Of a DNA stretch of 64,000 nt, positions 3,385 through 26,269 are shown in pieces. The stretch spans positions 124,001-188,000 of the forward strand of contig NZ_JACXAF010000006.1 in the NCBI RefSeq assembly GCF_014773395.1, in the 5' to 3' direction. Every line of letters starts with the position of its first letter. Within the stretch, counting starts at the first letter, position 1. The position numbers and the translations under genes are program-made. Origin of the DNA: Neiella litorisoli. GTDB lineage: Bacteria > Pseudomonadota > Gammaproteobacteria > Enterobacterales > Neiellaceae. Under the pieces are notes generated by a model. That model searched no databases and was not told the DNA's origin. It saw nothing but the letters and a program-made list of their open reading frames with translations.

Positions 3385-3419
3385 GTGTTTGAACCTTAGT
3401 TCTACGCTATTCAAGACGC

Positions 3420-4865
3420 TCATTCGAAGTTATATGCTTTTTTCACTAAGCCGTAGGTTAGCTGGTAAGCGAGTTCTTTGGCGTCAGCAAGAGTAATTTG
3501 CTGATTCGTCACTAATTCTGCTAAGTAGCGACAATCGACGCGCCGAGCAACATCATGACGAGCCGGAATGGACAAGAATGCGCGGGTATCATCGTTAAAG
3601 CCAACGGTGTTATAAAAACCAGCAGTTTCAGTCGTTTGCTGACGGAATCGCAGCATACCTGCGGGGCTGTCATGGAACCACCAGGCCGGACCCAGCTTCA
3701 GACTTGGATAGTGACCTGCCAATGGCGCAAGCTCACGGCTATAGGTTGTTTCATCCAGCGTAAACAAGATGATCTTCAAGTCTGGGTTGTTGCCGTATTT
3801 TGACAACAGCGGCTTGAGCGCTGAGACATATTCGGTCGGCGATGGAATATCGGCACCTTTGTCGCGACCATAAACCTCAAACACTTTTTGGTTGTGGTTG
3901 CGGTATGCACCTGGGTGGATTTGCATCACTAAGCCATCTTCAATGCTCATTCCGGCTAATTCTGTCAGCATTTGACCGCGGAACAGTTCTTGCTCTTGCT
4001 CGGATGCCTGACCGGTGACGCATTTGGCGTACAGTGCCTGACATTCATCCAGTGGCAGATCGGCCGTTAGTGCGGTTGGGTGGCCGTGATCCGTCGCGGT
4101 CGCGCGACCATGCGTTTTGAAGTACAAACGACGCTGGCGAATTGCTTCGAGGTAGCCGTGCCAAGATGTCACGTCACAACCGGTCAACTCACCCAGCTTT
4201 TCAATGTTCTGAGTGAAGTCTTCGCGACTGGCGTCAACGACATCGTCGGGACGGAAGGTAGTGATCACGCGCTTTGCCCACGGCGTACCGGCTAGCTTCT
4301 TGTGCTCAGCCAAATCGTCAAGCGCACCTTCTGTTGTTGCGATGACTTCAATGTTAAAGCGGTCCATCAGGGCGTGGGTTGAAAACTCAGGCGAGGTCAG
4401 TTGACGGTTGATTTCATGGTAGTACTCTTCGGCGTTAGCTGGGCACAGACGCTCGGTGAAACCAAACACTTTCGAGAAGGTTGAATCAAGCCAATAGCCA
4501 GATGGCGTGCCGGCAAACAAGAAGTAGTTTTCGGCAAAAATTTTCCACACATCAAGCGGATCAACAGCATGTTCTGCTGCTGGGTCGGCTTGTTCGCCTT
4601 GTTGTGGAATACCGAGTGATTCCAATGGAATGCCTTGGCTATAGAGCATCCGGAATACGTAGTGATCCGGTTTGATCAGCAGATCAGTAGCATTGTTAAA
4701 GTTCTTATTGTCGCCGAACCAGCTCGGATCGGTGTGGCCATGGGGACTGACAATCGGAAGATCTTTAATGCCGTCGTAAAGCTCTTTTGCTACGCGAACT
4801 ACATTGGAATCGCTGGAAAATAAGCGGTCTGGATGCATCGCAAGTTGAATCGGTGCGGCAGTCAT
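3420..4865 (-). CDS. uxaC: glucuronate/galacturonate isomerase
   Basis: A 481-residue protein colinear with UxaC throughout, including the N-terminal PIVSPHGHTDP motif whose two His are metal ligands in this amidohydrolase-fold enzyme, and the conserved GPAWWFHDSP and RHDVARR segments. It interconverts D-galacturonate with D-tagaturonate (and D-glucuronate with D-fructuronate) in the cytoplasm, the first step for the saturated monomer released by GH28 action. It starts with ATG at 4865 behind AGGAC. Only 51 bases separate it from the GH28 stop, and the downstream GH105 frame opens with an overlapping ATGA. The physically separate uxaB and uxaA at 31-34 kb complete the branch. Confidence 0.96.
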   Translation of the reverse strand: MTAAPIQLAMHPDRLFSSDSNVVRVAKELYDGIKDLPIVSPHGHTDPSWFGDNKNFNNATDLLIKPDHYVFRMLYSQGIPLESLGIPQQGEQADPAAEHAVDPLDVWKIFAENYFLFAGTPSGYWLDSTFSKVFGFTERLCPANAEEYYHEINRQLTSPEFSTHALMDRFNIEVIATTEGALDDLAEHKKLAGTPWAKRVITTFRPDDVVDASREDFTQNIEKLGELTGCDVTSWHGYLEAIRQRRLYFKTHGRATATDHGHPTALTADLPLDECQALYAKCVTGQASEQEQELFRGQMLTELAGMSIEDGLVMQIHPGAYRNHNQKVFEVYGRDKGADIPSPTEYVSALKPLLSKYGNNPDLKIILFTLDETTYSRELAPLAGHYPSLKLGPAWWFHDSPAGMLRFRQQTTETAGFYNTVGFNDDTRAFLSIPARHDVARRVDCRYLAELVTNQQITLADAKELAYQLTYGLVKKAYNFE

Positions 4866-10793: not shown

Positions 10794-11732
10794 ATGTTCT
10801 CTAAATTAGTCCGTCAGAAAGCTCATTACTCACCCACTATCAAATCTCCGTTATTGCTGCTGATATTGATGCTCAGCAGCATGCTGTCGTCAGCGGCGCT
10901 AGCGGCTGATACCAACCAAGTCACAATTAACAAACCTAGGCAAGGCAGCACTTACATGTTTGAGCTGATGAAGCTTGCTTTGTCTTACAGCTCACAGCCC
11001 TATGAATTCGTCGCCAATGCTGAGACTTTGAGTCGCCGAGCACAAACCGAAGCCGTGCGTAACGGTGATCTGGATGTCATGTGGGGCGGCACCTCAACAC
11101 AAATGGAACAAGACTTCATCCCCGTGCGTATTGACGGGTACCGAGGGATGATGAGTTTGCGCTTTATGTTAATCCGCAAAGGTGACCAGCAACTATTTGA
11201 TCAGGTTGATGATTATAATGACTTAAAGCGTTTAACCTTTGGTCAGGGGCGGACTTGGGCAGACCGAGATATTCTCGAGTCCGCAGGTTTAGATGTGGTC
11301 ACGGCACCGAAAAAGGCCAGTTTATTTTTTATGTTAGATGGCGAACGGTTTGATGCCTTTCCCCGTGGTGCAACAGAAGCCTGGCGTGAAGCTGAACAAT
11401 ACTCTCATCTCGATATTACTGTTGAAAATGGTTTAATTATTTCCTACCCATTGCCTACTTACTTTTTTGTTAATAAGAAAAACTTAACATTGGCACGAGA
11501 TATTGAGTCGGGGCTCGAAAAAATGCTAGTAGATGGCCGATTTGATGAGTTTTTTTATAATAATGATCGTATTCGACAATTCCTCACTCAAGCTGATTTA
11601 AATAACCGCCGCGTTATTCAACTTGATAATCCTTTATTACCTAAAAATACACCACTTCACCGAAAAGAATTGTGGTTATCTATTGAAGATTTAAAACGCG
11701 GAATGCGCCAGTATGGCGGCTATTCTGGTTAG
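10794..11732 (+). CDS. solitary periplasmic solute-binding protein
   Basis: A 312-residue exported protein with a signal peptide ending in AALAAD, then a body resembling the type II periplasmic binding proteins (SBP_bac_3-like; segments INKPRQGSTYMFELM, NGDLDVMWGG, LTFGQGRTWADRDIL). Such proteins normally feed an ABC permease or a sensor, yet no permease, ATPase or sensor kinase is nearby. It is AT-rich. It follows the GH43 gene by 37 bases, with GGAG before the ATG, so the two are probably co-transcribed. Similar orphan binding proteins beside TonB receptors occur in this group of bacteria. Ligand unknown. Confidence 0.65.
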   Translation: MFSKLVRQKAHYSPTIKSPLLLLILMLSSMLSSAALAADTNQVTINKPRQGSTYMFELMKLALSYSSQPYEFVANAETLSRRAQTEAVRNGDLDVMWGGTSTQMEQDFIPVRIDGYRGMMSLRFMLIRKGDQQLFDQVDDYNDLKRLTFGQGRTWADRDILESAGLDVVTAPKKASLFFMLDGERFDAFPRGATEAWREAEQYSHLDITVENGLIISYPLPTYFFVNKKNLTLARDIESGLEKMLVDGRFDEFFYNNDRIRQFLTQADLNNRRVIQLDNPLLPKNTPLHRKELWLSIEDLKRGMRQYGGYSG

Positions 11733-11906: not shown

Positions 11907-11970
11907 TTGTTCGGGTGGCAAATTTAATCAGATAATGACAATAAGCAGTAACGCAAAGGGGTCGATAAAT

Positions 11971-14900
11971 ATGAGGCGATGGAAGTTAAATGCCATCTCG
12001 GCTGCGCTTACCTTGGGATACGTAATGATCCCACATGCCATGGCGCAAGAAGAAGCTAAACAATCCGATGAGGAAGCCGTTGAGGTTATCCAGGTCAAAG
12101 GCATTCAGTACAGTGACCAACAAGCTCGTTTGATGGAACGAGAAAAAAGCCAGTTCAGCTCGGTGGTCTCGACCGATGATTTGGGTAACTTTGTTGATCA
12201 GAACGTTGCTGAGTCGCTGCGCCGCTTGCCTGGTGTGAGCCTACAACGCTCCGAGGGTGAGGGTAAATTCGTCAACGTCCGTGGTTTGGGGCCACAATTC
12301 GTTGCTGTCAATATGAACGGCGCCGAAATGGCTGGCGCGGGTGAAGATCGTAAAGTTGGGCTCGATGGTATCGCAGGCGATAGCTTGGGAGCGATTGAAG
12401 TATTTAAAACCCTAACGCCCGATATGAACTTGAACTCAATCGGTGGTGCGGTGAATGTGAAATCCATTTCCGCATACGACCGTGGCGGCAACAGCCTGAA
12501 GCTAAAAGTTCAGGATTCCTACAATGACTTGCGCGAAAAGCATTCGCCTAAGTTTACCTTAGATGGCACGCATTTATTTGCCGATGAAACCATTGGTATT
12601 GGTTTTGTTGCGTCGATGGAAGACCGCTATACCGCAGTCAACGAACAGCGCCATCACTCAACTAACACCTACCGCACCATTCGCCAATGGGATCCAAATG
12701 CCATTGATGAAGAGACCGGCGATCTCGGAGTTCAGGTTGGTGATGCCATCTTGGCTCCTTACCAGGTAGAGACTCGTCAGGAAGTGGCCGATCGTGAACG
12801 CGATACTGTTGGCTTAAACCTCGAGTTCCGCCCTAATGACGACAACTATTTCTACGTTAAAGGGAACTATGTTCGCTTTACTGACGAAGATGTTGCCTAC
12901 CGTGAATACTATCGTTTTGATAAGGCGGATAAAGACAACGAAATTATGTTCGTTGATGCGGCCACCAAAGAGTTTGTCGTCACTGATGCCGAGCTGCAGC
13001 ACCAGTACTTTATTCAGGAATCAGAGCAAAAGGTAAAAACCTTCAGCATTGGTGGTGAACACGTCTTTAATGATGTCTGGACCTTGGAATATGACTACTC
13101 CAAGTCGCGCTCCCGCGAAGACTCAGTCGATGATCGCCGTGTTCAATTCCGTGAACAAAACATCATTCTTTATGGCCAAGCCACCCAAGACGAAGTGTTC
13201 TATGAAGCACTGTCTCCAGAGGAAGTCATTGCTCAATATCCAACGGTTGATTTGGCAGGCTTCGGTAGCTACGACGGCGATGCTGCAAATCCGGATAACT
13301 GGGAATTCGACAACATGTTCCTCGAAGATTCGATTCGTCGTGATGAGATCGAAACCTTCAAAGCTGATTTAACTTACACCGTTGATAGTGATTGGTTGTA
13401 TTACATCAAAGCCGGTTTTGCCATCAGCGAGCGGATGAATGAGCTGGATAAGAACCGTTGGAGTTTTGTGCCAACCACAGATGGTTGTACAGACACCTAT
13501 GCTGCTGATTCAGCAGAACTAGCCGAGTGTTATAACGCCATTAAGATCTCACAGGATGAAGTGATCGCACCGGTTGCTGATGGCGGCCTTGGCTATTCCA
13601 CCGGTATTCCGAAAAACAGCAACTTCCAGTACCCATTTGTAGATAAGAAAACGCTGGAATATCTGACCGGTTTGATTGGTCCAACTAAGTATGCAGTGAC
13701 TGGCTATAGCGGTGACGATGATGTGGTGTCGTTCGAAAGCTCGGCGAACGATTACAAGCTGACCGAAGATGTCAACGAAGTGTACGTCATGGCAGAGTTT
13801 GAACTGCATGAAGACGTTACCTTGATCACTGGTGTTCGTTACGTTGATACCGAATTCTCCTCCAACGGTAACCTCGCGTTGAGCAACGATGAATTCGCAG
13901 TGGGTGAAGGCGAAGGTGCAGAGCTTGATGTGTTCGTACCAATGCCACAGGCCACTATCACCTACAGCGAGTACTTCCCAAGTGCTCACTTGCGTTGGGA
14001 AGCGGATGATGACTTGCTAGTGCGGGCGTCGATCTGGACTTCTTACACCCGTCCGACCTTTAAGCAAAACCGCGCTTATGCCCAGTTCAAGAATGACATT
14101 GAATTGTGTATGCCATCGACAGAAGAGGGCGTCGAGCCAGAGTGTTACACCGACAACGAGAACCTCGGTGCTTCTGCCATCGACTTGCAGGACTTTGTCC
14201 TCGGGCCGAACAACACGCTTGATTTAGGTAACCCGAACTTGGTGCCAATGACGGCCACCAACTTCGATGCCTCGATCAGCTGGTATGAGTCTGAAGATCT
14301 GTTTATCGAAGCGGCGATTTTCTACAAAGACATTGATGACTTCATTGTTGATGTTCAGGGTTATCCGGCCCGCCTTGATGAACTCCCAGTCACTCTGCCA
14401 GTTGGCCAGGTCACTGAATTCATTATTGCCGAAGACACTGAACTGCAAAACATCAACACCACCATTAACGGCGACTCTGCTTGGGTTTACGGTATGGAAT
14501 TGAGCTACAACCAGTTCTTTGACTGGGGTGGTTTTGTCCAGAGTAACTTGACAGTACAGGACAGTGAAGCCGACTTGGATTCCAGTATTCGTGATGACAG
14601 TGTGCCTCTGCCGGATCAGGCCGATGTCATGGGGAACCTGACCGTTGGTTGGGAAAATGATGACTGGTCGTTCCGTTTGATTGGTAACTACCGCTCTAAG
14701 GTACTTGAGGAAATTGGCTCGTGCCCAGCGGAAGAACATCAATCCGAAGGTCTGTCATCTTGGGAAGCCTGTAAGTCTTGGACCGATAAGTACCACGATG
14801 AAATTAAGACACTCGACTTCAAAGCGAAGTGGAATGTTATCGACGGTATGTCCATTTACTTCGATGCCATCAATATCACCGAACATGACGACATTCGCTA

Positions 14901-14997
14901 CTACAAGGGCAACGCCCTGACTGGCGGCAAAGTGCTCTCGCAACGCGAAGAGTACGGCCGTACTTATCAAGTAGGTGTGAACTACAAGTTCTACTAA
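11971..14997 (+). CDS. TonB-dependent outer-membrane receptor, second pectin-locus copy
   Basis: A receptor of about 1,008 residues: signal peptide ending in HAMAQEE, TonB-box-like EVIQVKGI, plug domain with NVAESLRRLPGVSL and FVNVRGLGPQF, and a beta-barrel ending YQVGVNYKFY. The longest frame starts at 11935, but AAAGGGG followed by ATG at 11971 gives a normal signal peptide and a good ribosome-binding site. It has its own -10/operator upstream. It is followed by a hairpin and the giant CE8-PL1 lipoprotein, so receptor and enzyme are probably one transcript. The sequence is clearly diverged from the receptor at 6934, suggesting a different oligomer. Confidence 0.92.
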   Translation: MRRWKLNAISAALTLGYVMIPHAMAQEEAKQSDEEAVEVIQVKGIQYSDQQARLMEREKSQFSSVVSTDDLGNFVDQNVAESLRRLPGVSLQRSEGEGKFVNVRGLGPQFVAVNMNGAEMAGAGEDRKVGLDGIAGDSLGAIEVFKTLTPDMNLNSIGGAVNVKSISAYDRGGNSLKLKVQDSYNDLREKHSPKFTLDGTHLFADETIGIGFVASMEDRYTAVNEQRHHSTNTYRTIRQWDPNAIDEETGDLGVQVGDAILAPYQVETRQEVADRERDTVGLNLEFRPNDDNYFYVKGNYVRFTDEDVAYREYYRFDKADKDNEIMFVDAATKEFVVTDAELQHQYFIQESEQKVKTFSIGGEHVFNDVWTLEYDYSKSRSREDSVDDRRVQFREQNIILYGQATQDEVFYEALSPEEVIAQYPTVDLAGFGSYDGDAANPDNWEFDNMFLEDSIRRDEIETFKADLTYTVDSDWLYYIKAGFAISERMNELDKNRWSFVPTTDGCTDTYAADSAELAECYNAIKISQDEVIAPVADGGLGYSTGIPKNSNFQYPFVDKKTLEYLTGLIGPTKYAVTGYSGDDDVVSFESSANDYKLTEDVNEVYVMAEFELHEDVTLITGVRYVDTEFSSNGNLALSNDEFAVGEGEGAELDVFVPMPQATITYSEYFPSAHLRWEADDDLLVRASIWTSYTRPTFKQNRAYAQFKNDIELCMPSTEEGVEPECYTDNENLGASAIDLQDFVLGPNNTLDLGNPNLVPMTATNFDASISWYESEDLFIEAAIFYKDIDDFIVDVQGYPARLDELPVTLPVGQVTEFIIAEDTELQNINTTINGDSAWVYGMELSYNQFFDWGGFVQSNLTVQDSEADLDSSIRDDSVPLPDQADVMGNLTVGWENDDWSFRLIGNYRSKVLEEIGSCPAEEHQSEGLSSWEACKSWTDKYHDEIKTLDFKAKWNVIDGMSIYFDAINITEHDDIRYYKGNALTGGKVLSQREEYGRTYQVGVNYKFY

Positions 14998-15020: not shown

Positions 15021-15049
15021 GCGCTGTTTTGCCACCGGTAGAACAGCGC
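15021..15049 (+). promoter_or_regulatory. intercistronic hairpin whose loop is an operator near-match
   Basis: GCGCTGTT (15021-15028) pairs with AACAGCGC (15042-15049). The interior contains TGCCACCGGTAGAA (15030-15043), 13 of 14 against the TGC(C/T)ACCGGT(A/G)GCA form. No T-run follows. It lies between the TonB receptor stop and the Shine-Dalgarno of the CE8-PL1 gene. Confidence 0.5.
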
Positions 15050-15064
15050 CTACAGGACAAACAA

Positions 15065-18000
15065 ATGAAATATAAATTATCAATACTCAGCAGTGTGATC
15101 AGCGCTGTATTAGTCTCCGGCTGTGGCTTTGAGTCGGATGAATATGTGTCAGAAAACACGGTGACAACACTGGAAGGCCAGTTGCTTGATAGTGCCGTTG
15201 CCGGTATCAAGTTCCGCCGCACCAACATTAATGGCGAAGTGACCGAAGGGGTGACCAACGCAGAAGGTAAGTTTGACTACGTTCGCGGTGAGTCCATTGA
15301 GTTCTACATTGGTGATGTGACACTGCCATCAGTGCCAGCAAAAACCATTGTGACGCCACTGAGCTTCTTCAACACCGACAACCCAAATGCCGAAAACGTT
15401 GCGAACGTGGCGCGGCTATTTCAATCGCTCGATAGCGACACCGATCCAAGCAATGGCATTGCCATTCACAGCAGTGCAGATGCCGTCGCTACAGTCAATA
15501 CCGATGCCGAAGGCAACCCGCTTACTCCTGAAGCATTTTTTGGCCAGCCAGGTGATGAATTTGCAGATGCGGTTGAAGTCTGGCTACCTGCCGCAACTGA
15601 CAATTTGCGCACCAGCATGGTGTCCTATGATGACGCCGTGAATCACTTTGTGGACACCCTCGCTGGATTGGGCGAATTCAAAGATCAGGCGTTTGCTGCC
15701 GACACCTTCGATGGTCCGTTGCACAATATTTTTGTTGAAAATGGTACTGTCGTTACCCAGTTGATGACCTTTACGCCGAATATGGAAGGTGAGACGGTAT
15801 TGCCGTCGGGCACTTACACCATCATTCAGGATGAAGTCGAAGTCGAAGTCGGCCAATACGAGTTAAGTACCAGCAAACAAGTACTGATCCTCAACAAGTT
15901 AGAAGCCGAGCAAGTAGTTTCTTCTGACTTCTTGATCTCGCTGGCGACTAGTTCTGAAGGCCAGATTTTCAGCGTCTGTTCGCGTGATTCTGACGATTTG
16001 TCTGAGTTAGTCGGCCTGCAAACCTTGGTGACAGACTGTGAAACCGTCAATAACCGTAAAGAAAACAAGCTGATCCTCAACGAAGAGCTGTTGGCTGATG
16101 AACAAGCAGCAATGCAGGAATATGCCGATTCGGTTGACCTGCCAGAGCCAGCATTGTTTGAAGACTTTGAAGTGGACAGTGTTAGCACTTTCTACTCGTC
16201 GAACTACAAGCGTTTAGCTGAATCAACCTCCAGCGGCGCGCTGTACTTTAAAACCGGCGGTACCATTGAGATTGAAAATGGCCAGCTTATCTTGGGCGGT
16301 GATCGCTTCTCGATTGGTAACACCACGCCGGATGTATCAACCACGTCTGCTGACACTAAAGGCACAGGTATTTACAACCTGAGCGAAGGCTTCACCATTA
16401 GTTTTGATGTCATCGACCACAACAGTGGCGGTAGCTTAAACATCTATGCCGATAACAACACCACGAGCTCGGGTAATTCCATGCATGGTGGCGATTCTAA
16501 GTTTATTGGCACATCAATCAATGATGAAAACTTCCCGAAAGGTCAGCGTTTTACCTTCAGCCACCCGGGCTTCCCTGCGACCACTAATTCGTTCTTACAG
16601 CTGCGTACTGACTCTGCCGGTAGTATCACCATTGATAACTTGCAGATCGAAACCGTTGCTGGTGCCGTCGTCAAAGAAGCTTATGAGCCGGTGACATTCA
16701 GCTGTACCGATGCCGCCGCTAGCACGTTGTACTTCTGTGATGACTTTGCCGCTGGCAATCTCGATAACTGGGATATCAATGCCGTTGCAGGCAATACCGA
16801 AGGGCCAGAAGGTGAGTTTGATGTCCTCGACTTGAGCGGCAACAACGTCATGCGTTACACCGCAGGTAGCTTAGGTGGTGTCATTGCAACCTTGAAAGAG
16901 TCGGTGATGGCTAACGTGCCTGACGCTGATTACTTCGTCGAAGCGAAAATTCGTCCGCGCCAGAATAGCACCACGGCGAGCAAGCACTTGTACCTGATGG
17001 GTCGCTATGTTGATGACCAAAACTGGTACGCCGGTGGTTTGAATATGCAAAACAGCCCGAGCTCGACTCGTGCTGAAGTGGCGACCTTGATCGCCGGTTC
17101 GTTGTCTCGTCCTGTCCAAGCCAAGCAACCATTTGTACTGGGTGAAAAAGGCGAAACTGAAGATGGTGTGTGGTACACGGTCCGTTTTGAAATGGTCGGT
17201 AGCGACCTGACGGTCTACGTCAATGGCGAAGAGAAGGGCACCTTTGCTGATACCAACTTCACCGCCAAGGGTTTAGCGGGTCTGTACACCTACAACCGTT
17301 CATTTGAGCTCGACAACTTACGAATTGGTTCGGCTGCCGATAAGCCGATTTATATTTCAACCGACCTTGCTGAAGATACTCTAACCGGTGGTGTTAATGG
17401 CGATCCGTTAACCTTTAGCATCAGTGCACTATTGGGCGATGGTTCAGCTGACACTGTCACCGTTCATTCTGGTGATGGCGATGTTGCTAAAGTCAGCATC
17501 GACGGTGATCTAGTCACTGTGCTGCCATTGGAAGAAGGGCAGACCATTATCTATATCGTGTCGTCGACTGATCCAAGCGTTTACAAAGAAATTCCAATCA
17601 ATGTAGCGCCGCAGTTTATTGACTCAGAAACTAATTATGGTGATTTGACAGGGAAGTTAACACCTGCCATCAACGAAGCTGACGGCTATGTTGATACCCT
17701 GCTGAGTGTTGAATTTGATTCAGCGCCAACGCTGGGTGAGTTGGGTATGGTGCGCATTTACAATGCCAATACCGACGAAATGGTCGATGAACTCAATGTC
17801 GCAGGTGATGTTGACACTATTACGTCTGAACTCACCGATAAGTTCCGTACCTTGCAGTACAAGCCTGTCTATGTTGAAGGCAACACCTTGATGATCAAAC
17901 CGCATCAGGGCGTGCTTGACTACAACACCAGTTACTACGTGGTGATCGGCAATGACGTGGTACTTGATACCAAGCTGAACGGTATCGACTTTGACGGCCT

Positions 18001-21000
18001 CGGCAGTGCTATGGGCTGGCAGTTCACCACCACTTCAGTGATGCCAACGGGCACCAATATTCTGGTTGATGACGATGGTGATGCCGACTTCCGTACCCTC
18101 CAGGGTGCGATGGCTTACGCCATGAAAGATAAAGACACGCCAATGACCATTTCCATTAAGGAAGGTGTCTACAACGAGCTGCTTTATCTGCGTGACAAAA
18201 ATAACCTCACCATTCAAGGTGAAAGCCGTGACAACACCATTGTTCAATACGAGAACTATGAAGGCTTGAATGGCGGTTCAGCAGGGCGCCCCGTGTTCTT
18301 AGTTGAAGGTTCTGACAATCTGGTGTTGAACAACTTCACTTTGAAGAACACTCACATGAGAACCGGTGCTGGTGATCAGGCCGAAGCCATTTACTTCAAT
18401 GGCCCAGGCAAGCGATTGACTGCGAATAACATGAACTTCCTCAGTGAGCAAGACACCTTGCAGCTGAAAGGTTACACCTGGATTTACAACAGTTTAGTTG
18501 CCGGTAACGTCGACTTCATCTGGGGTTATGCAGATGCAGTGTTGTTCGAAAACAGTGAAATTCGCAGCATCGGCCGCTCAGAGAAAGCACCTGATGATAG
18601 TGAAGGTGGTTACATTCTGCAGGCGCGTGTTCAGGATGCGAGCAAAGACAATGCTGGTTTCGTCTTCATGAACAACGAATTTACCAGTGGTCCAGGTCCA
18701 AAAGGCAACGGTGTACTGGATAATTCAACCTACTTTGCCCGTAGTGGTGGTAACTCTAGCTACTATGACAATGTCTTGTTGATTAACAACAAGTTGGGTC
18801 CACACATCAATACTGCAGGTTGGGCGACACAAGCCTCTACCGGCGGCGAGCAGCCTGATCCAAATCCTGCTGCACCAACTGAAACAATGGGTTGGCGTGA
18901 GTTCGGCAGTATGGATCTGCAAGGCAATCCGCTTGACTTGAGTGGTCGTGACCCTGCTTCGCTAGTACTTGGTGCTGCACCTTACAGCAACCGTGCTGAA
19001 GTGTTTGCCCAATTCAATAACGGCGAAGGCTGGGATCCACAACCATTGGATGCGCCAAACTTTGATGATGTTCCAGTTGACGATCCAATTGCTGAGCCAG
19101 CTGATGGCGACGGTGGCTTTGCGGGCGACGGCTACAGCATCACAGGTGGTGCTGGCGGCACCGTAGTAACGGTTGCAACAGGTAGTTCGCTAGTGAAAGC
19201 ACTGGACGATGCCAAAGATGCAGGCCAGCCAGTCACTATCTATGTTGATGGTACGATCACCGCTGCTAATACTGGCGATACCAACCGCAGCATTCCAATT
19301 AAAGACATTGATAATGTCTCGATCATTGGTGTAGCAGACCGTGGTGAGTTAAACGGCATCGGCTTCCAAATCGAACGGGCCCATAACGTCATTATCCGTA
19401 ACCTGAAAATCCATCAGGTTCCCGCTAGCTTCGGCGATGCCATCGGTATTGAAGGTGATGAAACTGTCGGCACTAGCCACATCTGGATTGATCACAATGA
19501 GCTGTATGGTTCACTGAATGTTGATAAAGACTTGTACGATGGTTTAGTCGATACCAAAGCCGGTGCGACCAACGTCACTGTGTCGTACAACTTCATTCAC
19601 GACCATTGGAAAACCATGCTCAATGGTTCGTCGGATGACGATGCTGGTGATCGCTTCATTACCTATCACCACAACTACTTCCTCAACCTGTACTCGCGAG
19701 TACCCTTGTTCCGCTATGGCTATGGCCACTTGTACAACAACTACTTCCGCAATATCACAGGCTCTGCGATTAACTCGCGGATGGGAGCGCAGCTACTGAT
19801 CGAAAACAACGTGTTCGAGAATGTGAAGAACCCGATTGTTTCGGTGTCATCTCGAGAAGTGGGCTACTGGGTTGCCAGTGGTAACAGCTTCACCGATGTC
19901 AGCTACTCCGATGATGATAGCTTTGGTGATAGTGAAGATAGCTACCAAATCTCGGGTCCGGTTACTGGTACTTACACCAGCGTGCCATACGACTACTCAG
20001 CGCACTTGCTAGACACTGACGATGTTAAAGCCCATGTCATGGCTCACGCTGGTGTTGGCAAAATCGACCAGTCAGGTGATGACATTCCAGCAATTGACGA
20101 TGGTGGCAACAATGGTGGCGGTGATAACGGCGGTGATGGCTCTGGCAACAGCGGTACACCTGACCTAGCCAGCGCTTACCTAGAAACCTTCTCGGCGGCT
20201 GATAGTGATGCGTTCTTCACATCTGCCTATCGCGACATCGATGGAGGCAACGATGGCTCGAAAGATCCAATGTATCGCGTTGCGACTGGTGGCAGCCGGA
20301 TCTTCGTAACTGACGGTGCGCTGGAGATGACTGGTGCTCGCTTTAGCATTGGTAACACCGTTGATACGGAAACGACTGCTGACGACGTGGCCACCACAGG
20401 TGTGCTGGATCTGAGCGAAGCCTATACCGTGAGCTTCACTGTTGTGAGCGTTGGCGGCACTACATCTAAGAAGTTCCAGTTGTATGCCGATAACAACACC
20501 TCAAGCAGCAGTAAGTCGATTCATGGTTCAGCCTCTAAGTTCTATGAAGTGGTATTGGAAGAGTTGGTCCCTGGTCAGACTTATGTTGTTGAGGGGTTAA
20601 TCGCGACGGATACCTCGTTCATTACCTTGCGTACTGAAACTGACGGCACCATTACCTTAGACGATATCAAAGTTGAGAAGACGGTTACTGGCCCTGCCAA
20701 CACCGGTACGCCAGATTTGGCAACGCCATACAGCGAAATCTTCAGTGCCGCTGATAGTGATGCGTTCTTCACATCTGCCTATCGTGACATTGATGGTGGC
20801 AGTGATGACAGCAAAGACCCGATGTATCGGGTCGCTACTGGCGGCAGCCGCATCTTCGTGACTGATGGTGCGTTAGAGATGACTGGTGCTCGCTTTAGCA
20901 TTGGTAACACCGTTGACACCGACACCACAGCAGATGATGTGGCCACCACAGGTGTGCTGGACTTGAGCGCCGAATATACGGTGAGCTTTACGGTTGTCAG

Positions 21001-21238
21001 CGTCGGTGGTGCAACGACCAAGAAGTTCCAGTTGTATGCTGATAACAACACCTCAAGCAGCAGTAAGTCGATTCATGGCTCTGCCTCTAAGTTCTACGAG
21101 GTGGTACTGGATGACTTAGTTGCTGGCGAAACTTATGTTGCTGAAGGCTTGGTTGCGACCTCAACATCCTTCATTACCTTGCGTACTGAAACGGATGCCA
21201 CAATCACTATTGATAACCTGGTGATTAGTAAGAAGTAA
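15065..21238 (+). CDS. giant multimodular lipoprotein: CE8 pectin methylesterase fused to PL1 pectate lyase
   Basis: About 2,057 residues from the ATG at 15065 (AGGA seven bases before); the longer frame from a TTG at 15002 would spoil the lipobox LVSGC. Approximate layout: N-terminal region to ~360; beta-sandwich module A ~361-534; concanavalin-like module ~545-756; Ig-like regions ~760-990; CE8 ~996-1310; PL1 ~1350-1665; Gly/Asn/Asp linker; modules B and C, near-identical and related to A. In CE8, GVYNE, QDTL (Q1129, D1130) and NVDFIWG (D1150) are present, but the usual LGRPW is replaced by FARSGG. In PL1, WIDH and SRVPLFR are intact. Predicted to demethylate and then cleave homogalacturonan at the cell surface. 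A marine Pseudoalteromonas pectate lyase with an added methylesterase domain is known, so the concept has precedent. Confidence 0.9.
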   Translation: MKYKLSILSSVISAVLVSGCGFESDEYVSENTVTTLEGQLLDSAVAGIKFRRTNINGEVTEGVTNAEGKFDYVRGESIEFYIGDVTLPSVPAKTIVTPLSFFNTDNPNAENVANVARLFQSLDSDTDPSNGIAIHSSADAVATVNTDAEGNPLTPEAFFGQPGDEFADAVEVWLPAATDNLRTSMVSYDDAVNHFVDTLAGLGEFKDQAFAADTFDGPLHNIFVENGTVVTQLMTFTPNMEGETVLPSGTYTIIQDEVEVEVGQYELSTSKQVLILNKLEAEQVVSSDFLISLATSSEGQIFSVCSRDSDDLSELVGLQTLVTDCETVNNRKENKLILNEELLADEQAAMQEYADSVDLPEPALFEDFEVDSVSTFYSSNYKRLAESTSSGALYFKTGGTIEIENGQLILGGDRFSIGNTTPDVSTTSADTKGTGIYNLSEGFTISFDVIDHNSGGSLNIYADNNTTSSGNSMHGGDSKFIGTSINDENFPKGQRFTFSHPGFPATTNSFLQLRTDSAGSITIDNLQIETVAGAVVKEAYEPVTFSCTDAAASTLYFCDDFAAGNLDNWDINAVAGNTEGPEGEFDVLDLSGNNVMRYTAGSLGGVIATLKESVMANVPDADYFVEAKIRPRQNSTTASKHLYLMGRYVDDQNWYAGGLNMQNSPSSTRAEVATLIAGSLSRPVQAKQPFVLGEKGETEDGVWYTVRFEMVGSDLTVYVNGEEKGTFADTNFTAKGLAGLYTYNRSFELDNLRIGSAADKPIYISTDLAEDTLTGGVNGDPLTFSISALLGDGSADTVTVHSGDGDVAKVSIDGDLVTVLPLEEGQTIIYIVSSTDPSVYKEIPINVAPQFIDSETNYGDLTGKLTPAINEADGYVDTLLSVEFDSAPTLGELGMVRIYNANTDEMVDELNVAGDVDTITSELTDKFRTLQYKPVYVEGNTLMIKPHQGVLDYNTSYYVVIGNDVVLDTKLNGIDFDGLGSAMGWQFTTTSVMPTGTNILVDDDGDADFRTLQGAMAYAMKDKDTPMTISIKEGVYNELLYLRDKNNLTIQGESRDNTIVQYENYEGLNGGSAGRPVFLVEGSDNLVLNNFTLKNTHMRTGAGDQAEAIYFNGPGKRLTANNMNFLSEQDTLQLKGYTWIYNSLVAGNVDFIWGYADAVLFENSEIRSIGRSEKAPDDSEGGYILQARVQDASKDNAGFVFMNNEFTSGPGPKGNGVLDNSTYFARSGGNSSYYDNVLLINNKLGPHINTAGWATQASTGGEQPDPNPAAPTETMGWREFGSMDLQGNPLDLSGRDPASLVLGAAPYSNRAEVFAQFNNGEGWDPQPLDAPNFDDVPVDDPIAEPADGDGGFAGDGYSITGGAGGTVVTVATGSSLVKALDDAKDAGQPVTIYVDGTITAANTGDTNRSIPIKDIDNVSIIGVADRGELNGIGFQIERAHNVIIRNLKIHQVPASFGDAIGIEGDETVGTSHIWIDHNELYGSLNVDKDLYDGLVDTKAGATNVTVSYNFIHDHWKTMLNGSSDDDAGDRFITYHHNYFLNLYSRVPLFRYGYGHLYNNYFRNITGSAINSRMGAQLLIENNVFENVKNPIVSVSSREVGYWVASGNSFTDVSYSDDDSFGDSEDSYQISGPVTGTYTSVPYDYSAHLLDTDDVKAHVMAHAGVGKIDQSGDDIPAIDDGGNNGGGDNGGDGSGNSGTPDLASAYLETFSAADSDAFFTSAYRDIDGGNDGSKDPMYRVATGGSRIFVTDGALEMTGARFSIGNTVDTETTADDVATTGVLDLSEAYTVSFTVVSVGGTTSKKFQLYADNNTSSSSKSIHGSASKFYEVVLEELVPGQTYVVEGLIATDTSFITLRTETDGTITLDDIKVEKTVTGPANTGTPDLATPYSEIFSAADSDAFFTSAYRDIDGGSDDSKDPMYRVATGGSRIFVTDGALEMTGARFSIGNTVDTDTTADDVATTGVLDLSAEYTVSFTVVSVGGATTKKFQLYADNNTSSSSKSIHGSASKFYEVVLDDLVAGETYVAEGLVATSTSFITLRTETDATITIDNLVISKK
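20155..21235 (+). repeat. tandem in-gene duplication of a ~170-residue module
   Basis: The segments at about 20155-20690 and 20702-21235 encode near-identical modules (shared words include FSAADSDAFFTSAYRDIDGG, ALEMTGARFSIGNTVDT and LYADNNTSSSSKSIHG) and are also highly similar at the DNA level, pointing to a recent duplication. A diverged third copy lies at about 16147-16665 in the same gene. The fold looks like a beta-sandwich carbohydrate-binding module, but I do not recognise the family. Confidence 0.85.
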
Positions 21239-22763: not shown

Positions 22764-24122
22764 ATGGTCAGTATCGTTCGTCGATTATTTATCATGGTGG
22801 CTTTGTTTGGCGCCGCACAATGTTATGCAGCGACGGACTGGCTCACGCCAGAGCAGATCGTCGCCAAGATTAAGCTGCCACAAATACCCGAACAACAATT
22901 TAATATTGTTGATTTTGGCGCGCAGTCAGGCAGCGATGCGCGACCTGCGATCATGGCCGCGATTGCTGCCGCAAGTAAAGAAGGCGGCGGTAAGGTCATC
23001 ATTCCGAAAGGAAAATGGCTTTCCAATGGCCCTGTTCATTTGCAAAGCAGGATTAATCTGCACCTAGCAGAAGGTGCGCACCTGCTATTTTCTGCCAACC
23101 CCGCCCACTATTTACCCGTGGTAAAAGTGCGTTGGGAAGGTACTGAAGTGTTCACTTACTCGCCACTAATCTATGCCGCAGATGTTGAAGATGTGGCGAT
23201 TACTGGTACCGGAATCGTTGATGGCAATGCCAATAGCCAATTTAAATCTTGGCATGAGCATCAATGGCCAGATATTCGCAAGCTGAGAAAAATGGGCTTT
23301 ACCGGTGTGCCGGCAGAGCAACGGGTGTTTGGCGATGGTACCTATCTTCGTCCGGACTTGATTCAGTTCTTTAATGCCGAACGAGTCTTGCTTGAGGGTT
23401 ATACCAGCACCAACTCGCCATTCTGGGTCAACCACTTGGTCAATACGCGCCATGCGACATTGCGCCAATTAAAAGTGGATAGTCATTTCCATAACAACGA
23501 TGGCGTTGATATTGAGTCCTCGCAATTGGTGTTAGTGGAAGATTGTTTGTTCCGCACTGGCGATGATTCGGTGGTGGTTAAATCTGGCCGCGATCTGGAC
23601 GGCCGCACCATCGGTATTCCAAGCACAGATATTGTCGTGCGTAACAATGACATGGGTGGAGAAGATGGCATCGGTCTTGGCAGTGAAATGTCAGGCGGCA
23701 TTGCCAATGTTTATTTTCTCGATAATGTGCTGCGCCAAGGCGATTCGGCATTTCGTTTTAAGTCTAATTTAGACCGCGGTGGCTTGGTTGAACATGTGGT
23801 GATCCGCAACACTAAGGTTGAGAGTTTTACCAACTTGTTCTGGTTCCAGATGAACTATCCGAGTGAGCTTGGTGGCAACTTCCCATCAACCTATAAAGAT
23901 ATTTTGTTTGAGGACATGACAGTGGCCAACGTCACTAATTTTCTCGAGATCCATGCACCAGAAGCGGCGCCTCTGCAAGACGTGACGTTTCGCAATATCT
24001 CGGTGACCAAGACTGAGAATAACTTCAACATCGAAAATGCGGTGGGTCTGAAATTTGACAATGTTCAGCTTGGTGAGCAAGTGTTTGATGGCACCATGAA
24101 TTGGCGCCGCGTGAAACCGTGA
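22764..24122 (+). CDS. exported GH28 family protein with a non-canonical active site
   Basis: A 452-residue protein with a signal peptide (QCYAATD). The GH28 right-handed helix is clear: YSPLIYA, NNDGVDIE and TGDDSVVVKSG keep the three catalytic Asp. However, the GHGG motif reads GEDG (Glu at residue 300 in place of His), and RIK reads RFK. Canonical polygalacturonases need the His for full activity; some GH28 rhamnogalacturonases lack it, so a different substrate (rhamnogalacturonan, xylogalacturonan) or an altered mechanism is possible. The start at 22764 has TAGGAGAG seven bases upstream. The following esterase frame begins inside or just after its stop, implying an operon. Confidence 0.88.
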   Translation: MVSIVRRLFIMVALFGAAQCYAATDWLTPEQIVAKIKLPQIPEQQFNIVDFGAQSGSDARPAIMAAIAAASKEGGGKVIIPKGKWLSNGPVHLQSRINLHLAEGAHLLFSANPAHYLPVVKVRWEGTEVFTYSPLIYAADVEDVAITGTGIVDGNANSQFKSWHEHQWPDIRKLRKMGFTGVPAEQRVFGDGTYLRPDLIQFFNAERVLLEGYTSTNSPFWVNHLVNTRHATLRQLKVDSHFHNNDGVDIESSQLVLVEDCLFRTGDDSVVVKSGRDLDGRTIGIPSTDIVVRNNDMGGEDGIGLGSEMSGGIANVYFLDNVLRQGDSAFRFKSNLDRGGLVEHVVIRNTKVESFTNLFWFQMNYPSELGGNFPSTYKDILFEDMTVANVTNFLEIHAPEAAPLQDVTFRNISVTKTENNFNIENAVGLKFDNVQLGEQVFDGTMNWRRVKP

Positions 24123-24175
24123 CAATCAAGCGCTGGCCATTGCCACTGAGTATGAAAAGGGGGGTGGAAAGGGGC

Positions 24176-25177
24176 ATGGCAAGGGGTGTTGTACTCAGTA
24201 TCGCCGTGGCCCTAGTGCTGACTCACGTCATCGGCGTTGCTCAGTATGCTAGCGCCAGTGCGCTGGTCATTGATGATAGCTACACACCCACGTCTCGGTT
24301 ACAGCGCTATATCAAGAAAAGCCCGCAGTTGCGTCAGCCTGAGTTGTTGATGCAACAAGGTCAGCGCTTGTTGTTCGATCAAAAATACAAACAAGTCGAA
24401 CAACGCGAATTGCATCTAGATATGTTTTTGCCAACGCCAGAGCGTCACAATCAGCAGAGTATTGTAATGATCCATGGGGGTGGTTGGCGAGCCGGCCATC
24501 GCTCCCACTTCTATCCATTGGCTAACTTACTGGCACAACGTGGCTACACCGTGGTTGTGCCAGAATACCGTTTGACCCCAGAAGCGCGTTATCCAGCTGC
24601 TATTGAAGATTTGTTTGATGCTTTGATATGGCTTCAACAGCAGTCTCAGCGATTCAGTCTTAAGGCTGATGGTATCACCGTACTGGGTGGTTCATCTGGT
24701 GGCCATCTGGCGGCGTTATTGGGCTATTCAGCAGCAAGTGGCGCGTTTGCTAGAGACCAGCAGTTAACTGCTGCCATCAAGGCGGTGGTGGATTTAGATG
24801 GGGTATTAGATTTAACGGAGCCGGCTTTGCTTGAGACCGAGCGAGCAAACGATCCTCAGGCGCCGTTGCCAGCTTGGCTGGGAGGGACGTATCAACAGGC
24901 CCCAGCGATCTGGCGGCAGGCATCGCCACTTCACTATTTAAGTGACAAGGCGCCCGCCTCCATGGTGATCAGTAGTGGCGCGGAGCGCTTCACTATTGGG
25001 CGTATCAAGCTTGCCGCGCACTATCAGAAAATGGGCATTAATTTTCGCTATCAGCAATTGCCCAATGTCATACACACTTTTTGGCTATTCGACCCCTATG
25101 TCACGCAATTGGCGCCGATGATCGGGCAATTCCTCGAATCGTTAGGGCCGGTTGAACGCTTGCCAGTCAGTAAATAG
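24176..25177 (+). CDS. exported alpha/beta-hydrolase esterase (HSL-like)
   Basis: An alpha/beta-hydrolase of the hormone-sensitive-lipase-like group: oxyanion motif MIHGGGW, nucleophile elbow GGSSGG, and a C-terminal His in NVIHTFW. Preceded by PL1 and GH28, it is likely to remove acetyl (or feruloyl/methyl) esters from pectin fragments; the exact ester is unknown. Start choice is open: the frame runs back to a TTG at 24101 overlapping GH28, an ATG at 24152 and an ATG at 24176. The last has GGTGGA eight bases upstream and gives a standard signal peptide (MARGVVLSIAVALVL...). Its 3' end overlaps the opposing CE8 gene by 36 bp. Confidence 0.8.
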   Translation: MARGVVLSIAVALVLTHVIGVAQYASASALVIDDSYTPTSRLQRYIKKSPQLRQPELLMQQGQRLLFDQKYKQVEQRELHLDMFLPTPERHNQQSIVMIHGGGWRAGHRSHFYPLANLLAQRGYTVVVPEYRLTPEARYPAAIEDLFDALIWLQQQSQRFSLKADGITVLGGSSGGHLAALLGYSAASGAFARDQQLTAAIKAVVDLDGVLDLTEPALLETERANDPQAPLPAWLGGTYQQAPAIWRQASPLHYLSDKAPASMVISSGAERFTIGRIKLAAHYQKMGINFRYQQLPNVIHTFWLFDPYVTQLAPMIGQFLESLGPVERLPVSK

Positions 25178-26269
25178 GTAGTCGTGTATTTGCTCGATGG
25201 ACAAACTCGGCTGCCAGCTCAAGCCAATGTCATCACGAGTTGCGCCAGGGCCGTAGCTGCCTTGTTCATAAAACCGTGATTGTTGAGGAGTGAATACGGC
25301 CGTTTTAGTGCCGTCTCGGGCGGTTCCCTTCATTGACGACCAATGACTTGGATGAATGTGGCTATCCATAAAGCAATCAATGAATGATACCTGACCAACG
25401 GCATTGGGATCGGCGTAGCGGCCATCGGCAAAGTTGGTGGTTGGGTGCCATGGTCGGCCAAGGGTCACCGAATGATCCGGCAAGCCAGCTTCGCGGGTCA
25501 GTTGCGAACGATGCACCACAATGCCAATGGGATTAGCCAGCTGAGTTGATGGCGCGCTGATGTACGACTGAATGACACCTGCGTCAAAGGTTTTACCGCG
25601 ACGGCGCGATTCGATGATGCTGTCTTCGATCAATAGTTGGCCATTGCCAAAGATAAAATCAACATTGCCGGCAATTTTGCTATGACGAAAATAGGCCCGT
25701 TTGCCATTGGCGAACAGGGTATCTTGATAGGCTTCAAGACTGACGTTACTGAATTCGACGCGATCACTGGCAATATCAAGTAGAACCGCGGCAGCTTGCA
25801 TATGACGGACGCGCTGGGGTGAATCTTTCGGTAGCGCGTCATTGCTCAGATAATCGAAATCATTGGCAATGGTTAGCCCTTCGATGGCGACTAAATCAGC
25901 ATTAATCGTCAGCGTTGCAGAACCGGCAGTACCCCAATTGTCGCGATGGTACTTACCAGCGGTTTCGGCCACTTCATCAAAATGCAGACGAGTCAGCTGC
26001 GGGCCTTGGCCGACTAAGCGGATCTGGCTACCGGCAATAGTCACCTTCTCATAGTAGTGGCCAGCAGCCACTTCAATGGTACGCCAGCCCGAAGCAGTGG
26101 CTTGCTGGGCCGCATCGAAGGCGGCTTGAATGGTATTAAAGCAATGCTGTTGAGTACCACATTGCTTACTCACCAGATAACTGCCAGATTGCTCAGCAGG
26201 GGTTGCGCCAACTAGCGGCGATGACATGATCATCGCCGTGAGGGCTAATTGTGAGACCAACTTGGCCAT
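25142..26269 (-). CDS. exported pectin methylesterase, CE8
   Basis: A 375-residue pectinesterase with a signal peptide (LVGATPAE). All CE8 catalytic motifs are intact: GHYYEKV, YQDTLF, GNVDFIFG (nucleophile Asp) and TLGRPW (Arg/Trp). It removes methyl esters from homogalacturonan, opening it for PL1 and GH28. It is the third gene of the LacI-CE12-CE8 unit (21-base gap after CE12). Its last 36 bases overlap, tail to tail, the esterase on the other strand, so antisense transcription across the junction is unavoidable unless termination occurs within a coding region. It is intact where the CE8 module of the giant lipoprotein is not. Confidence 0.94.
   Translation of the reverse strand: MAKLVSQLALTAMIMSSPLVGATPAEQSGSYLVSKQCGTQQHCFNTIQAAFDAAQQATASGWRTIEVAAGHYYEKVTIAGSQIRLVGQGPQLTRLHFDEVAETAGKYHRDNWGTAGSATLTINADLVAIEGLTIANDFDYLSNDALPKDSPQRVRHMQAAAVLLDIASDRVEFSNVSLEAYQDTLFANGKRAYFRHSKIAGNVDFIFGNGQLLIEDSIIESRRRGKTFDAGVIQSYISAPSTQLANPIGIVVHRSQLTREAGLPDHSVTLGRPWHPTTNFADGRYADPNAVGQVSFIDCFMDSHIHPSHWSSMKGTARDGTKTAVFTPQQSRFYEQGSYGPGATRDDIGLSWQPSLSIEQIHDYLFTDWQAFNRP

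What the first reader, a model, noticed from the sequence alone, without database searches (positions are those of the whole stretch)
15065..21238. Surface-anchored CE8-PL1 fusion with three copies of an unassigned binding-like module
One lipoprotein of ~2,057 residues joins methylesterase and pectate lyase, so demethylation and cleavage could occur in sequence at the membrane. A module with the words RFSIGNT, LYADNNTSS and HGxxSKF occurs once before and twice after the catalytic domains. I cannot place it in a known carbohydrate-binding family. A Pseudoalteromonas enzyme combining these two activities is known; the full architecture here may differ.
Basis: partly seen in the sequence, partly recalled or inferred. 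Interest (0 to 1): 0.6.

Follow-up and report, generated by a model that had tools for sequence, protein, structure and literature searches.

The report
Pectin-cutting surface protein with transporter partner
A marine-type bacterium carries a giant predicted cell-surface protein that strips and cuts plant pectin and has three copies of an unnamed sugar-binding-like module, and in related genomes it is this module, more than the cutting parts, that stays paired with a neighbouring outer-membrane uptake channel.

Summary
One ORF (15065-21238, 2057 aa) is a predicted lipoprotein with a CE8 methylesterase, a PL1 pectate lyase and three copies of a ~170-residue module. None of 142 module copies matches a Pfam or NCBIfam family consistently. 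A confident AlphaFold2 model is a CBM-like beta-jelly-roll. The CE8-PL1 architecture is not new: 36 of 63 loci have it, and Saccharobesus litoralis, with the same module layout, is listed in print as 'PL1, CE8, lipobox'. In 246 sampled genomes of one related family, an ortholog of the TonB-dependent receptor just upstream (11935-14997) occurs in 22, the module occurs in the same 22 and no other, and in 22 of 22 the gene after the receptor is a lipoprotein with the same N-terminal domain and modules. CE8 is present in 18 of these, PL1 in 20, neither in 2. None of 14 module-free PL1 genes has a recognisable receptor nearby. I propose that the constant unit is a surface pectin-capture lipoprotein working with that receptor, analogous to Bacteroidetes surface glycan-binding proteins but without SusD, onto which CE8 and PL1 were fused. 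Binding and receptor contact are inferred, not shown.

The parts
15065..21238 (+). 2057-aa predicted lipoprotein: N-terminal domain, module M1, LamG-like region, spacer, CE8, PL1, modules M2 and M3
   Evidence: ORF and translation; Pfam
15134..16129 (+). N-terminal domain (residues 24-355); present in 22 of 22 receptor-linked lipoproteins
   Evidence: no Pfam match at E<=0.01 in 36 members; short match of its first part to AcfD/SslE structure 23px, E 4.1e-4; AF2 pLDDT 91.4
16151..16657 (+). Module M1 (residues 363-531), position-specific N1 subtype
   Evidence: A1 alignment; the 27 N1 rows form one group, 100/100
16706..17359 (+). LamG-like region (residues 548-765); label is mine
   Evidence: Pfam below cut-off: 3keto-disac_hyd 23.7 (cut-off 26.8), Laminin_G_3 17.3 (27.6) bits
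17360..18019 (+). Two-part spacer (residues 766-985), called Big and Ig5 in scripts; labels by eye, no family match
   Evidence: no Pfam match; travels with LamG and CE8 in relatives
18056..18829 (+). CE8 pectin methylesterase (Pfam match, residues 998-1255); Q1105, Q1129-D1130 and D1150 align with the motifs of the enzyme in 1gq8
19115..20065 (+). PL1 pectate lyase (residues 1351-1667); R1545 and R1550 of SRVPLFR conserved
20174..20683 (+). Module M2 (residues 1704-1873)
   Evidence: AF2 pLDDT 95.8, pTM 0.91
20726..21235 (+). Module M3 (residues 1888-2057), recent duplicate of M2
   Evidence: 85% identity; sister rows 100/99
11935..14997 (+). TonB-dependent receptor, 67 nt upstream of the lipoprotein start, same strand; proposed partner
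   Evidence: Pfam PF00593 and PF07715; orthologs directly before the lipoprotein in 22 of 22
15021..15049 (+). RNA hairpin in the receptor-lipoprotein gap
   Evidence: whole gap -22.5 kcal/mol, z -3.1, 3 of 200 shuffles fold as well; same apical sequence with different but complementary arms in L005
21597..22670 (+). Free-standing PL1 gene
22764..24122 (+). GH28 family gene
24101..25177 (+). Esterase-like alpha/beta hydrolase (BD-FAE)
25142..26269 (-). Second, free-standing CE8 gene

Best explanation
The protein is an outer-membrane lipoprotein that captures and pre-digests homogalacturonan for the TonB-dependent receptor encoded directly upstream. The N-terminal domain and first module (N1) are the constant, receptor-linked part. 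The other modules are CBM-like jelly-rolls that hold the pectin chain. CE8 removes methyl esters and PL1 then cuts the de-esterified chain next to the receptor, which imports the unsaturated oligogalacturonides. Other enzymes of the same cluster (GH88, GH28, KduI, UxaC, altronate dehydratase, KDPG aldolase families) finish the job inside the cell. Shown here: gene order, domain content, catalytic motifs, predicted fold, conservation of the pairing. Inferred: surface exposure, pectin binding by the module, contact with the receptor, import of the products.
For: (1) Receptor-led search, blind to the module: orthologs at E<=1e-100 in 22 of 246 sampled genomes of one family; 22 of 22 have the N-terminal-domain-plus-module lipoprotein as next gene. 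(2) Module-led search of the same 246 genomes: the same 22 and no other at E<=1e-6. (3) Only that part is constant: CE8 in cis 18/22, PL1 20/22, neither 2/22, where a PL1 gene follows separately. (4) Control: of 24 PL1 ORFs found in 118 genomes of that family, 10 carry modules and follow the receptor; the other 14 show no module and no recognisable receptor in the 9-13 kb stretches fetched. (5) Over the wider set, 55 of 62 module loci have such a receptor adjacent on the same strand, including a Gilvimarinus lipoprotein (L055) with two modules and no Pfam enzyme domain. (6) In Microbulbifer L019-L021 the same parts are neighbouring separate genes: LamG-CE8, PL1-module, module-module, receptor. 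(7) Elsewhere modules accompany PL1, Pel9A-like and CBM77 domains. (8) Jelly-roll model close to CBM29, CBM6, CBM61 and a porphyran CBM, VIA Z 9.4-10.1. (9) Nearly invariant R56, R153, K/R122 and polar D106, N107, N108, S115, S121, S148 fit an acidic ligand (inference). (10) The surrounding genes form a pectin and galacturonate pathway.
Against: No binding or localisation data exist. Jelly-rolls also serve protein-protein roles: the top VIA rows are reelin, meprin and gingipain adhesin domains; Foldseek's best E is only 9.5e-4 with TM about 0.3-0.5, and Eph receptor domains fill many of its top rows. Adjacency may reflect one inherited operon: the 22 genomes are related, and 19 of their 22 contigs have the lengths of contigs already among the module loci, so the two searches largely see the same loci. 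Seven of 62 module loci lack such an adjacent receptor: L050, L059, L063 (Bacillota or Acholeplasmatales records), two Cellvibrio, one Marinimicrobium, and L039, cut by a contig end. Conserved aromatics typical of CBM platforms are few.
Confidence: 0.6

Rival explanations
1. An ordinary multimodular pectinase: the modules are CBMs that keep the enzymes on insoluble cell wall, and the receptor is merely the next gene of one inherited operon with no physical link.
For: CBM-like fold; modules also occur with PL1 and Pel9A-like enzymes with no such receptor adjacent in Cellvibrio, Marinimicrobium and Evansella.
Against: Lipoproteins filled by six modules with no catalytic domain keep the receptor neighbour (L035, L044); 14 of 14 module-free PL1 genes lack one; the N1 module is one position-specific group.
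Confidence: 0.3
2. The modules are structural or protein-protein adhesion domains (MAM or cleaved-adhesin-like) that space the enzymes from the membrane or join protein copies, not glycan binders.
For: Top VIA rows are reelin, meprin and gingipain adhesin domains, Z 9.8-10.8; copy number varies from 2 (L098) to 6 (L047) in CE8-PL1 proteins.
Against: Those rows are tied with CBM29 and the porphyran CBM (Z 9.8-10.1); modules recur beside pectin-active domains of several families and phyla; weak below-cut-off CBM_6 and CBM_4_9 matches fall on some copies; nearly invariant Arg/Lys and polar residues.
Confidence: 0.15
3. The target is not plant homogalacturonan but another galacturonate-bearing glycan, for example of algae or diatoms.
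For: Many of the named bacteria are marine-type Alteromonadales (habitat recalled), where algal glycans abound; fine specificity of CE8 and PL1 cannot be read from sequence.
Against: CE8, PL1, GH28, GH88 and KduI/UxaC families in one cluster are the classical homogalacturonan set (recalled); S. litoralis CCB-QB4 uses pectin for growth (PMC7953866, passage read).
Confidence: 0.1

Closest known systems
Saccharobesus litoralis (Catenovulum sp. CCB-QB4) Pd5_PL1, WP_108605272.1
   Same: 64.6% identity over 100%; same order with one module before and two after; receptor upstream; listed as PL1, CE8, lipobox (PMC7953866, passages read)
   Different: the passages read name no binding module and no receptor link for this protein; its C-terminal modules belong to another branch of the module tree
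Pseudoalteromonas CE8-PL1 proteins (HL-AS1; P. haloplanktis ATCC 14393)
   Same: all domains, lipobox and receptor neighbour
   Different: two modules before and one after the enzymes; the ANT/505 enzyme paper could not be read
Bacteroidetes SusCD, SGBP and utilisome systems (PMC7618045, abstract and passages)
   Same: works alike if the proposal holds: TonB-dependent channel paired with a surface lipoprotein that binds glycan, with a surface enzyme in the complex
   Different: no SusD match; the enzymes are fused to the lipoprotein; Gammaproteobacteria, whereas an ISME J paper says only Bacteroidetes are known to have the SusD-like partner (PMC8319329, introduction passage)
CBM29, CBM6, CBM61, CBM4 and the porphyran-binding CBM (8xmz)
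   Same: beta-jelly-roll fold, VIA Z 9.2-10.1 over 114-129 residues
   Different: 10-20% identity; no sequence match over a family cut-off
CBM77 (pectin-binding CBM)
   Same: pectin context; CBM77 and the module sit in one protein in L063
   Different: CBM77 is not among the families that any of 142 module copies match at E<=0.01

Membership tests
CE8 pectin methylesterase | Pfam PF01095 over cut-off and catalytic Asp pair with Gln | tested here: met
   71.7 bits against 27; QDTL and GNVDFIWG motifs, D1130 and D1150, aligned with 1gq8
CE8 pectin methylesterase | late Arg-Trp motif of plant and Erwinia-type enzymes (recalled) | tested here: inconclusive
   the 1gq8 alignment ends before it; YFARSGG at 1223 has the Arg but no Trp, by eye
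PL1 pectate lyase | PF00544 over cut-off and catalytic Arg motif | tested here: met
   116.6 bits against 24; RVPxxR aligned with 7xks, 3vmv and 2qxz
Outer-membrane surface lipoprotein | lipobox Cys, no Asp at +2 (rule recalled) | tested here: met
   LVSGCG, residues 16-21; lipobox-like stretches in relatives
Outer-membrane surface lipoprotein | exposed on the outer face | not testable with these tools
   needs proteinase shaving or labelling
Known CBM family (Pfam-held) | match over the curated cut-off | tested here: not met
   no CBM over cut-off among 142 copies; below cut-off only: CBM_4_9 17.3 bits against 25.9 and CBM_6 13.5 against 28.9, CBM_6 16.6 on the module stretch of L048
Known CBM family in CAZy outside Pfam | match to a CAZy or dbCAN family | not testable with these tools
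   no dbCAN library at hand
CBM-like fold | beta-jelly-roll model aligned with CBM structures | tested here: met
   VIA Z 9.4-10.1 with CBM29, CBM6, CBM61, tied with non-CBM jelly-rolls
Glycan-binding module | measured binding of a carbohydrate | not testable with these tools
   inference only
SusD family | SusD sequence domain | tested here: not met
   no SusD model among Pfam matches of the whole protein at E<=1, the modules or the N-terminal domain
TonB-receptor partner lipoprotein (functional class) | constant gene pairing with one receptor ortholog group | tested here: met
   22 of 22 next to the receptor; same 22 of 246 genomes from the module side; 0 of 14 for module-free PL1
TonB-receptor partner lipoprotein (functional class) | physical complex | not testable with these tools
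SslE/AcfD lipoproteins | SslE/AcfD zinc-protease lipoprotein model NF037974 | tested here: not met
   16.7 bits against 800, residues 24-118 only; a short shared N-terminal segment remains possible

The most novel reading that the evidence does not exclude
Marine Gammaproteobacteria have a non-homologous counterpart of the Bacteroidetes SusCD/SGBP machine: a TonB-dependent receptor obligately partnered by a multi-module glycan-binding lipoprotein of an unnamed family (N-terminal domain plus N1 module as receptor dock or lid), on which enzymes are optional fused cargo, giving a one-polypeptide pectin utilisome.
Probability: 0.35. Interest if true: 0.75.

Novelty: new variant of a known kind. 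Interest (0 to 1): 0.55.

Why it matters
It separates an ordinary fact (CE8-PL1 fusions exist) from an untested one: a defined, unnamed module family and N-terminal domain that follow one TonB-dependent receptor whether or not enzymes are attached. [quoted passage not shown] How Gammaproteobacteria capture polysaccharide for import could be tested directly with this pair. The enzyme-free lipoproteins (L035, L044) are natural test pieces for binding alone.

Tried and rejected
Module as a Pfam or NCBIfam family: at E<=0.01 six Pfam and four NCBIfam models were matched by one member each of 142, mostly unrelated to one another; rejected as noise. Module profiles against PDB sequences gave only chance-level matches (best E 0.21 and 0.59). 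The viral collection gave 69 pattern matches, none a relative. N-terminal domain fold: no Foldseek match at E<=0.001; VIA Z below 8 to lipocalin-like barrels over about residues 182-333 of the model, so not assigned. SusD does not appear in the structure rows shown, which excludes nothing. The promoter scan found fewer sites than shuffles (10 against a mean of 23.2), of no use. Literature: ten searches, lists capped at 12-20 rows; no title or abstract opening shown names this module or such a receptor-lipoprotein pair in Gammaproteobacteria. Subscription papers are mostly not held, Truong 2001 among them.

At order level 5 of 295 genomes had the receptor at E<=1e-120, one being the window's own; the other four recur. 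The first module scan used one sequence pattern, so divergent copies are missed; of 85 confirmed stretches the best 80 were kept, 61 loci. L038 gave no module ORF and is left out of the 62. Of the 36 CE8-PL1 loci, 34 have all parts in one ORF; L029 and L031 read as two ORFs; L034 is cut by a contig end. Eleven partial module copies and then near-duplicates were dropped before alignment A2 (180 copies to 139, plus 3 from the window). Only L055 among the Gilvimarinus-type proteins was scanned with Pfam; the others were checked only against the window's own domains. In one search the receptor profile was built from 42 receptors related to the window's, so very distant receptors, or ones outside the stretches, could be missed. 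Two Cellvibrio rows (L048) were labelled as C-terminal modules in the tree through a partial N-terminal match. One receptor match (G481) has an in-frame stop. In the window's own genus 1 of 3 genomes, its own, has the protein.
Full report
What is there. The ORF 15065-21238 encodes 2057 residues with a lipobox (LVSG|C20). Pfam places CE8 at 998-1255 and PL1 at 1407-1584; two LamG-type hits around 619-754 are below cut-off. PDB sequences match PL1 over 1351-1667 (7xks, E 7e-83) and CE8 from 995 (1gq8, E 1.4e-11). Catalytic motifs are present: QDTL (D1130) and GNVDFIWG (D1150) in CE8, SRVPLFR (R1545, R1550) in PL1. The repeated module spans 363-531, 1704-1873 and 1888-2057. M2 and M3 are 85% identical and sister rows in the tree (100/99), a recent duplication; M1 is 39% identical to M2 and closest to the first module of S. 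litoralis (86%).

Is the module a known family? Five copies scanned at E up to 10 gave only below-cut-off matches, CBM_6 13.5 bits and CBM_4_9 17.3 bits among them. Of 142 copies none matched a CBM over cut-off, and Pfam and NCBIfam matches at E<=0.01 were single and scattered. In the Cellvibrio protein L048 a CBM_6 match of 16.6 bits (cut-off 28.9) falls on a module. Profiles found no PDB sequence relative. AlphaFold2 with 136 sequences gave pLDDT 95.8 and pTM 0.91. Foldseek against PDB gave weak matches (best E 9.5e-4, a rhamnogalacturonan lyase; many Eph receptor domains; CBM35, CBM6, CBM4 and a porphyran CBM within the top 50). VIA-align gave Z 9.2-10.8 to a mixed group of beta-jelly-rolls: reelin, meprin, gingipain adhesin, CBM29, porphyran CBM 8xmz, CBM61, CBM6, CBM4. 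The fold is thus CBM-like, while membership in a Pfam CBM family was tested and not met. CAZy families outside Pfam could not be tested. Nearly invariant residues include R56, Y104, D106, N107, N108, S115, S121, K/R122, S148 and R153; a basic, polar site would suit a uronate polymer (inference).

How widespread is the architecture? A scan of genome contigs with the nine-copy module alignment found 61 loci; with the two plasmid loci L005 and L006 that makes 63, of which 62 gave 67 module ORFs and 191 module copies. The order N-terminal domain, modules, LamG-spacer-CE8-PL1, modules is seen in 36 of 63 loci, with 1-5 modules before and 0-2 after the enzymes (L029 and L031 read as two ORFs, L034 cut). 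S. litoralis matches the window's layout and was listed in 2021 as PL1, CE8, lipobox without a named binding module in the passages read (PMC7953866). So the fusion itself is not new. Two loci have N-terminal domain, modules and PL1 without CE8 (L026, L052); two have N-terminal domain and six modules filling the protein, with no enzyme (L035, L044). In Microbulbifer L019-L021 the same parts are separate neighbouring genes: LamG-CE8, PL1-module, module-module, then the receptor. Gilvimarinus-type proteins (L055, L060-L062, L064, L065, L069, L070) have two modules and none of the window's enzyme domains, again beside the receptor; L055, the one scanned, has no Pfam enzyme domain. Other contexts are PL1, Pel9A-like and CBM77 proteins, including records labelled Bacillota, Evansella and Acholeplasmatales.

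The partner. The gene ending 67 nt before the lipoprotein start is a TonB-dependent receptor. Over the module loci, 55 of 62 have a related receptor adjacent on the same strand, 48 upstream and 7 downstream. This is biased by the module query, so I searched with the receptor instead: 22 of 246 sampled genomes of one family (taken to be GTDB Alteromonadaceae) have an ortholog at E<=1e-100; 21 are 51-59% identical and the one in G329 came in two pieces of 68 and 76%. I fetched the DNA downstream of all 22. In 22 of 22 the next gene has the N-terminal domain and at least one module; CE8 is in 18, PL1 in 20, neither in 2, and in those two a separate PL1 gene follows. One lipoprotein has two LamG-CE8 units (L098). 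Searching the same 246 genomes with the module alignment gave the same 22 genomes and no other at E<=1e-6. As control, the PL1 family was searched in 118 genomes of that family: 27 matches in 24 ORFs of 14 genomes. Ten are the module-bearing proteins already seen beside the receptor. For the other 14, stretches of 9-13 kb around the gene contain neither module nor recognisable receptor. The pairing therefore follows the module lipoprotein, not pectate lyase as such. The genomes are related, so these are not independent events.

Evolution of the array. In a tree of 142 modules the 27 first modules after the N-terminal domain form one group (100/100), including those of the enzyme-free L035 and L044 and the PL1-only L052; later N modules and C-terminal modules fall in other groups and have been duplicated and exchanged. 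The window's first module is nearest to that of S. litoralis, but its C-terminal modules group with those of BrNp21-10, Paraglaciecola algarum, Colwellia and Pseudoalteromonas instead. A fixed, position-specific first module fits a docking or lid role better than generic adhesion; this is inference.

The N-terminal domain (24-355) has no Pfam family at E<=0.01 in 36 members. Its first part resembles a short segment of the AcfD homolog structure 23px (E 4.1e-4) and of NCBIfam SslE/AcfD. The model (pLDDT 91.4) has a C-terminal half aligned with lipocalin-like barrels at Z below 8, which is not an assignment.

Proposed working. Lipid anchor at the outer membrane; first module and N-terminal domain near the receptor; further modules hold homogalacturonan; CE8 de-esterifies; PL1 cuts; the receptor imports the products; the surrounding cluster (free PL1, GH28, second CE8, DUF4861-GH88, KduI family, UxaC, mannitol-dehydrogenase family, altronate dehydratase family, PfkB kinase, KDPG aldolase, LacI regulator) completes catabolism. 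Shown: sequence, order, conservation, predicted fold. Inferred: surface exposure, binding, contact, import. The Bacteroidetes utilisome (PMC7618045, abstract and passages) is the nearest functional analogy; SusD itself is absent from the Pfam matches.

Verdict.

Noticed in passing
window 15021-15049; L005 receptor-lipoprotein gap: A 13-pair RNA hairpin lies between receptor and lipoprotein genes (gap -22.5 kcal/mol, z -3.1). In L005 the apical TTGCCACCGGTA is kept while the stem arms differ yet still pair.
   Followed up: partly
25 loci, last ~20 nt before the lipoprotein start, e.g. L012:2314, L028:2325: CATCC-loop-GGGATG/GGGTGA hairpin that encloses the Shine-Dalgarno with GGA in the loop, like a CsrA site (recalled); 25 of the 40 loci with this lipoprotein (L048, a marginal match, not counted), 5 matches elsewhere (pattern made). 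Not found in the window's gap.
   Followed up: partly
L019-L021: Microbulbifer has the CE8, PL1 and module parts as separate adjacent genes with the receptor downstream: natural unfused counterpart.
   Followed up: partly
L098: 2660-aa relative with two LamG-CE8 units before PL1.
   Followed up: no
L029, L031: The lipoprotein reads as two ORFs in Alteromonas oceani and a Paraglaciecola MAG; inactivation or assembly error.
   Followed up: no
window 10794-11732: 312-aa ORF between GH43 and the receptor with no Pfam match at E<=0.001.
   Followed up: no
window 6934-9648: A second TonB-dependent receptor in the same pectin cluster, with a GH43 gene, not a module protein, as next gene on its strand.
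   Followed up: no
window 844-3423 (-): DUF4861 fused to GH88.
   Followed up: no
L005, L006: Both full-length relatives of the plasmid collection lie on replicons of 208 and 806 kb, and 1 of 3 genomes of the window's genus has the protein, suggesting a movable pectin cluster.
   Followed up: partly
L063: A contig labelled Acholeplasmatales carries a protein with both CBM77 and the module.
   Followed up: no
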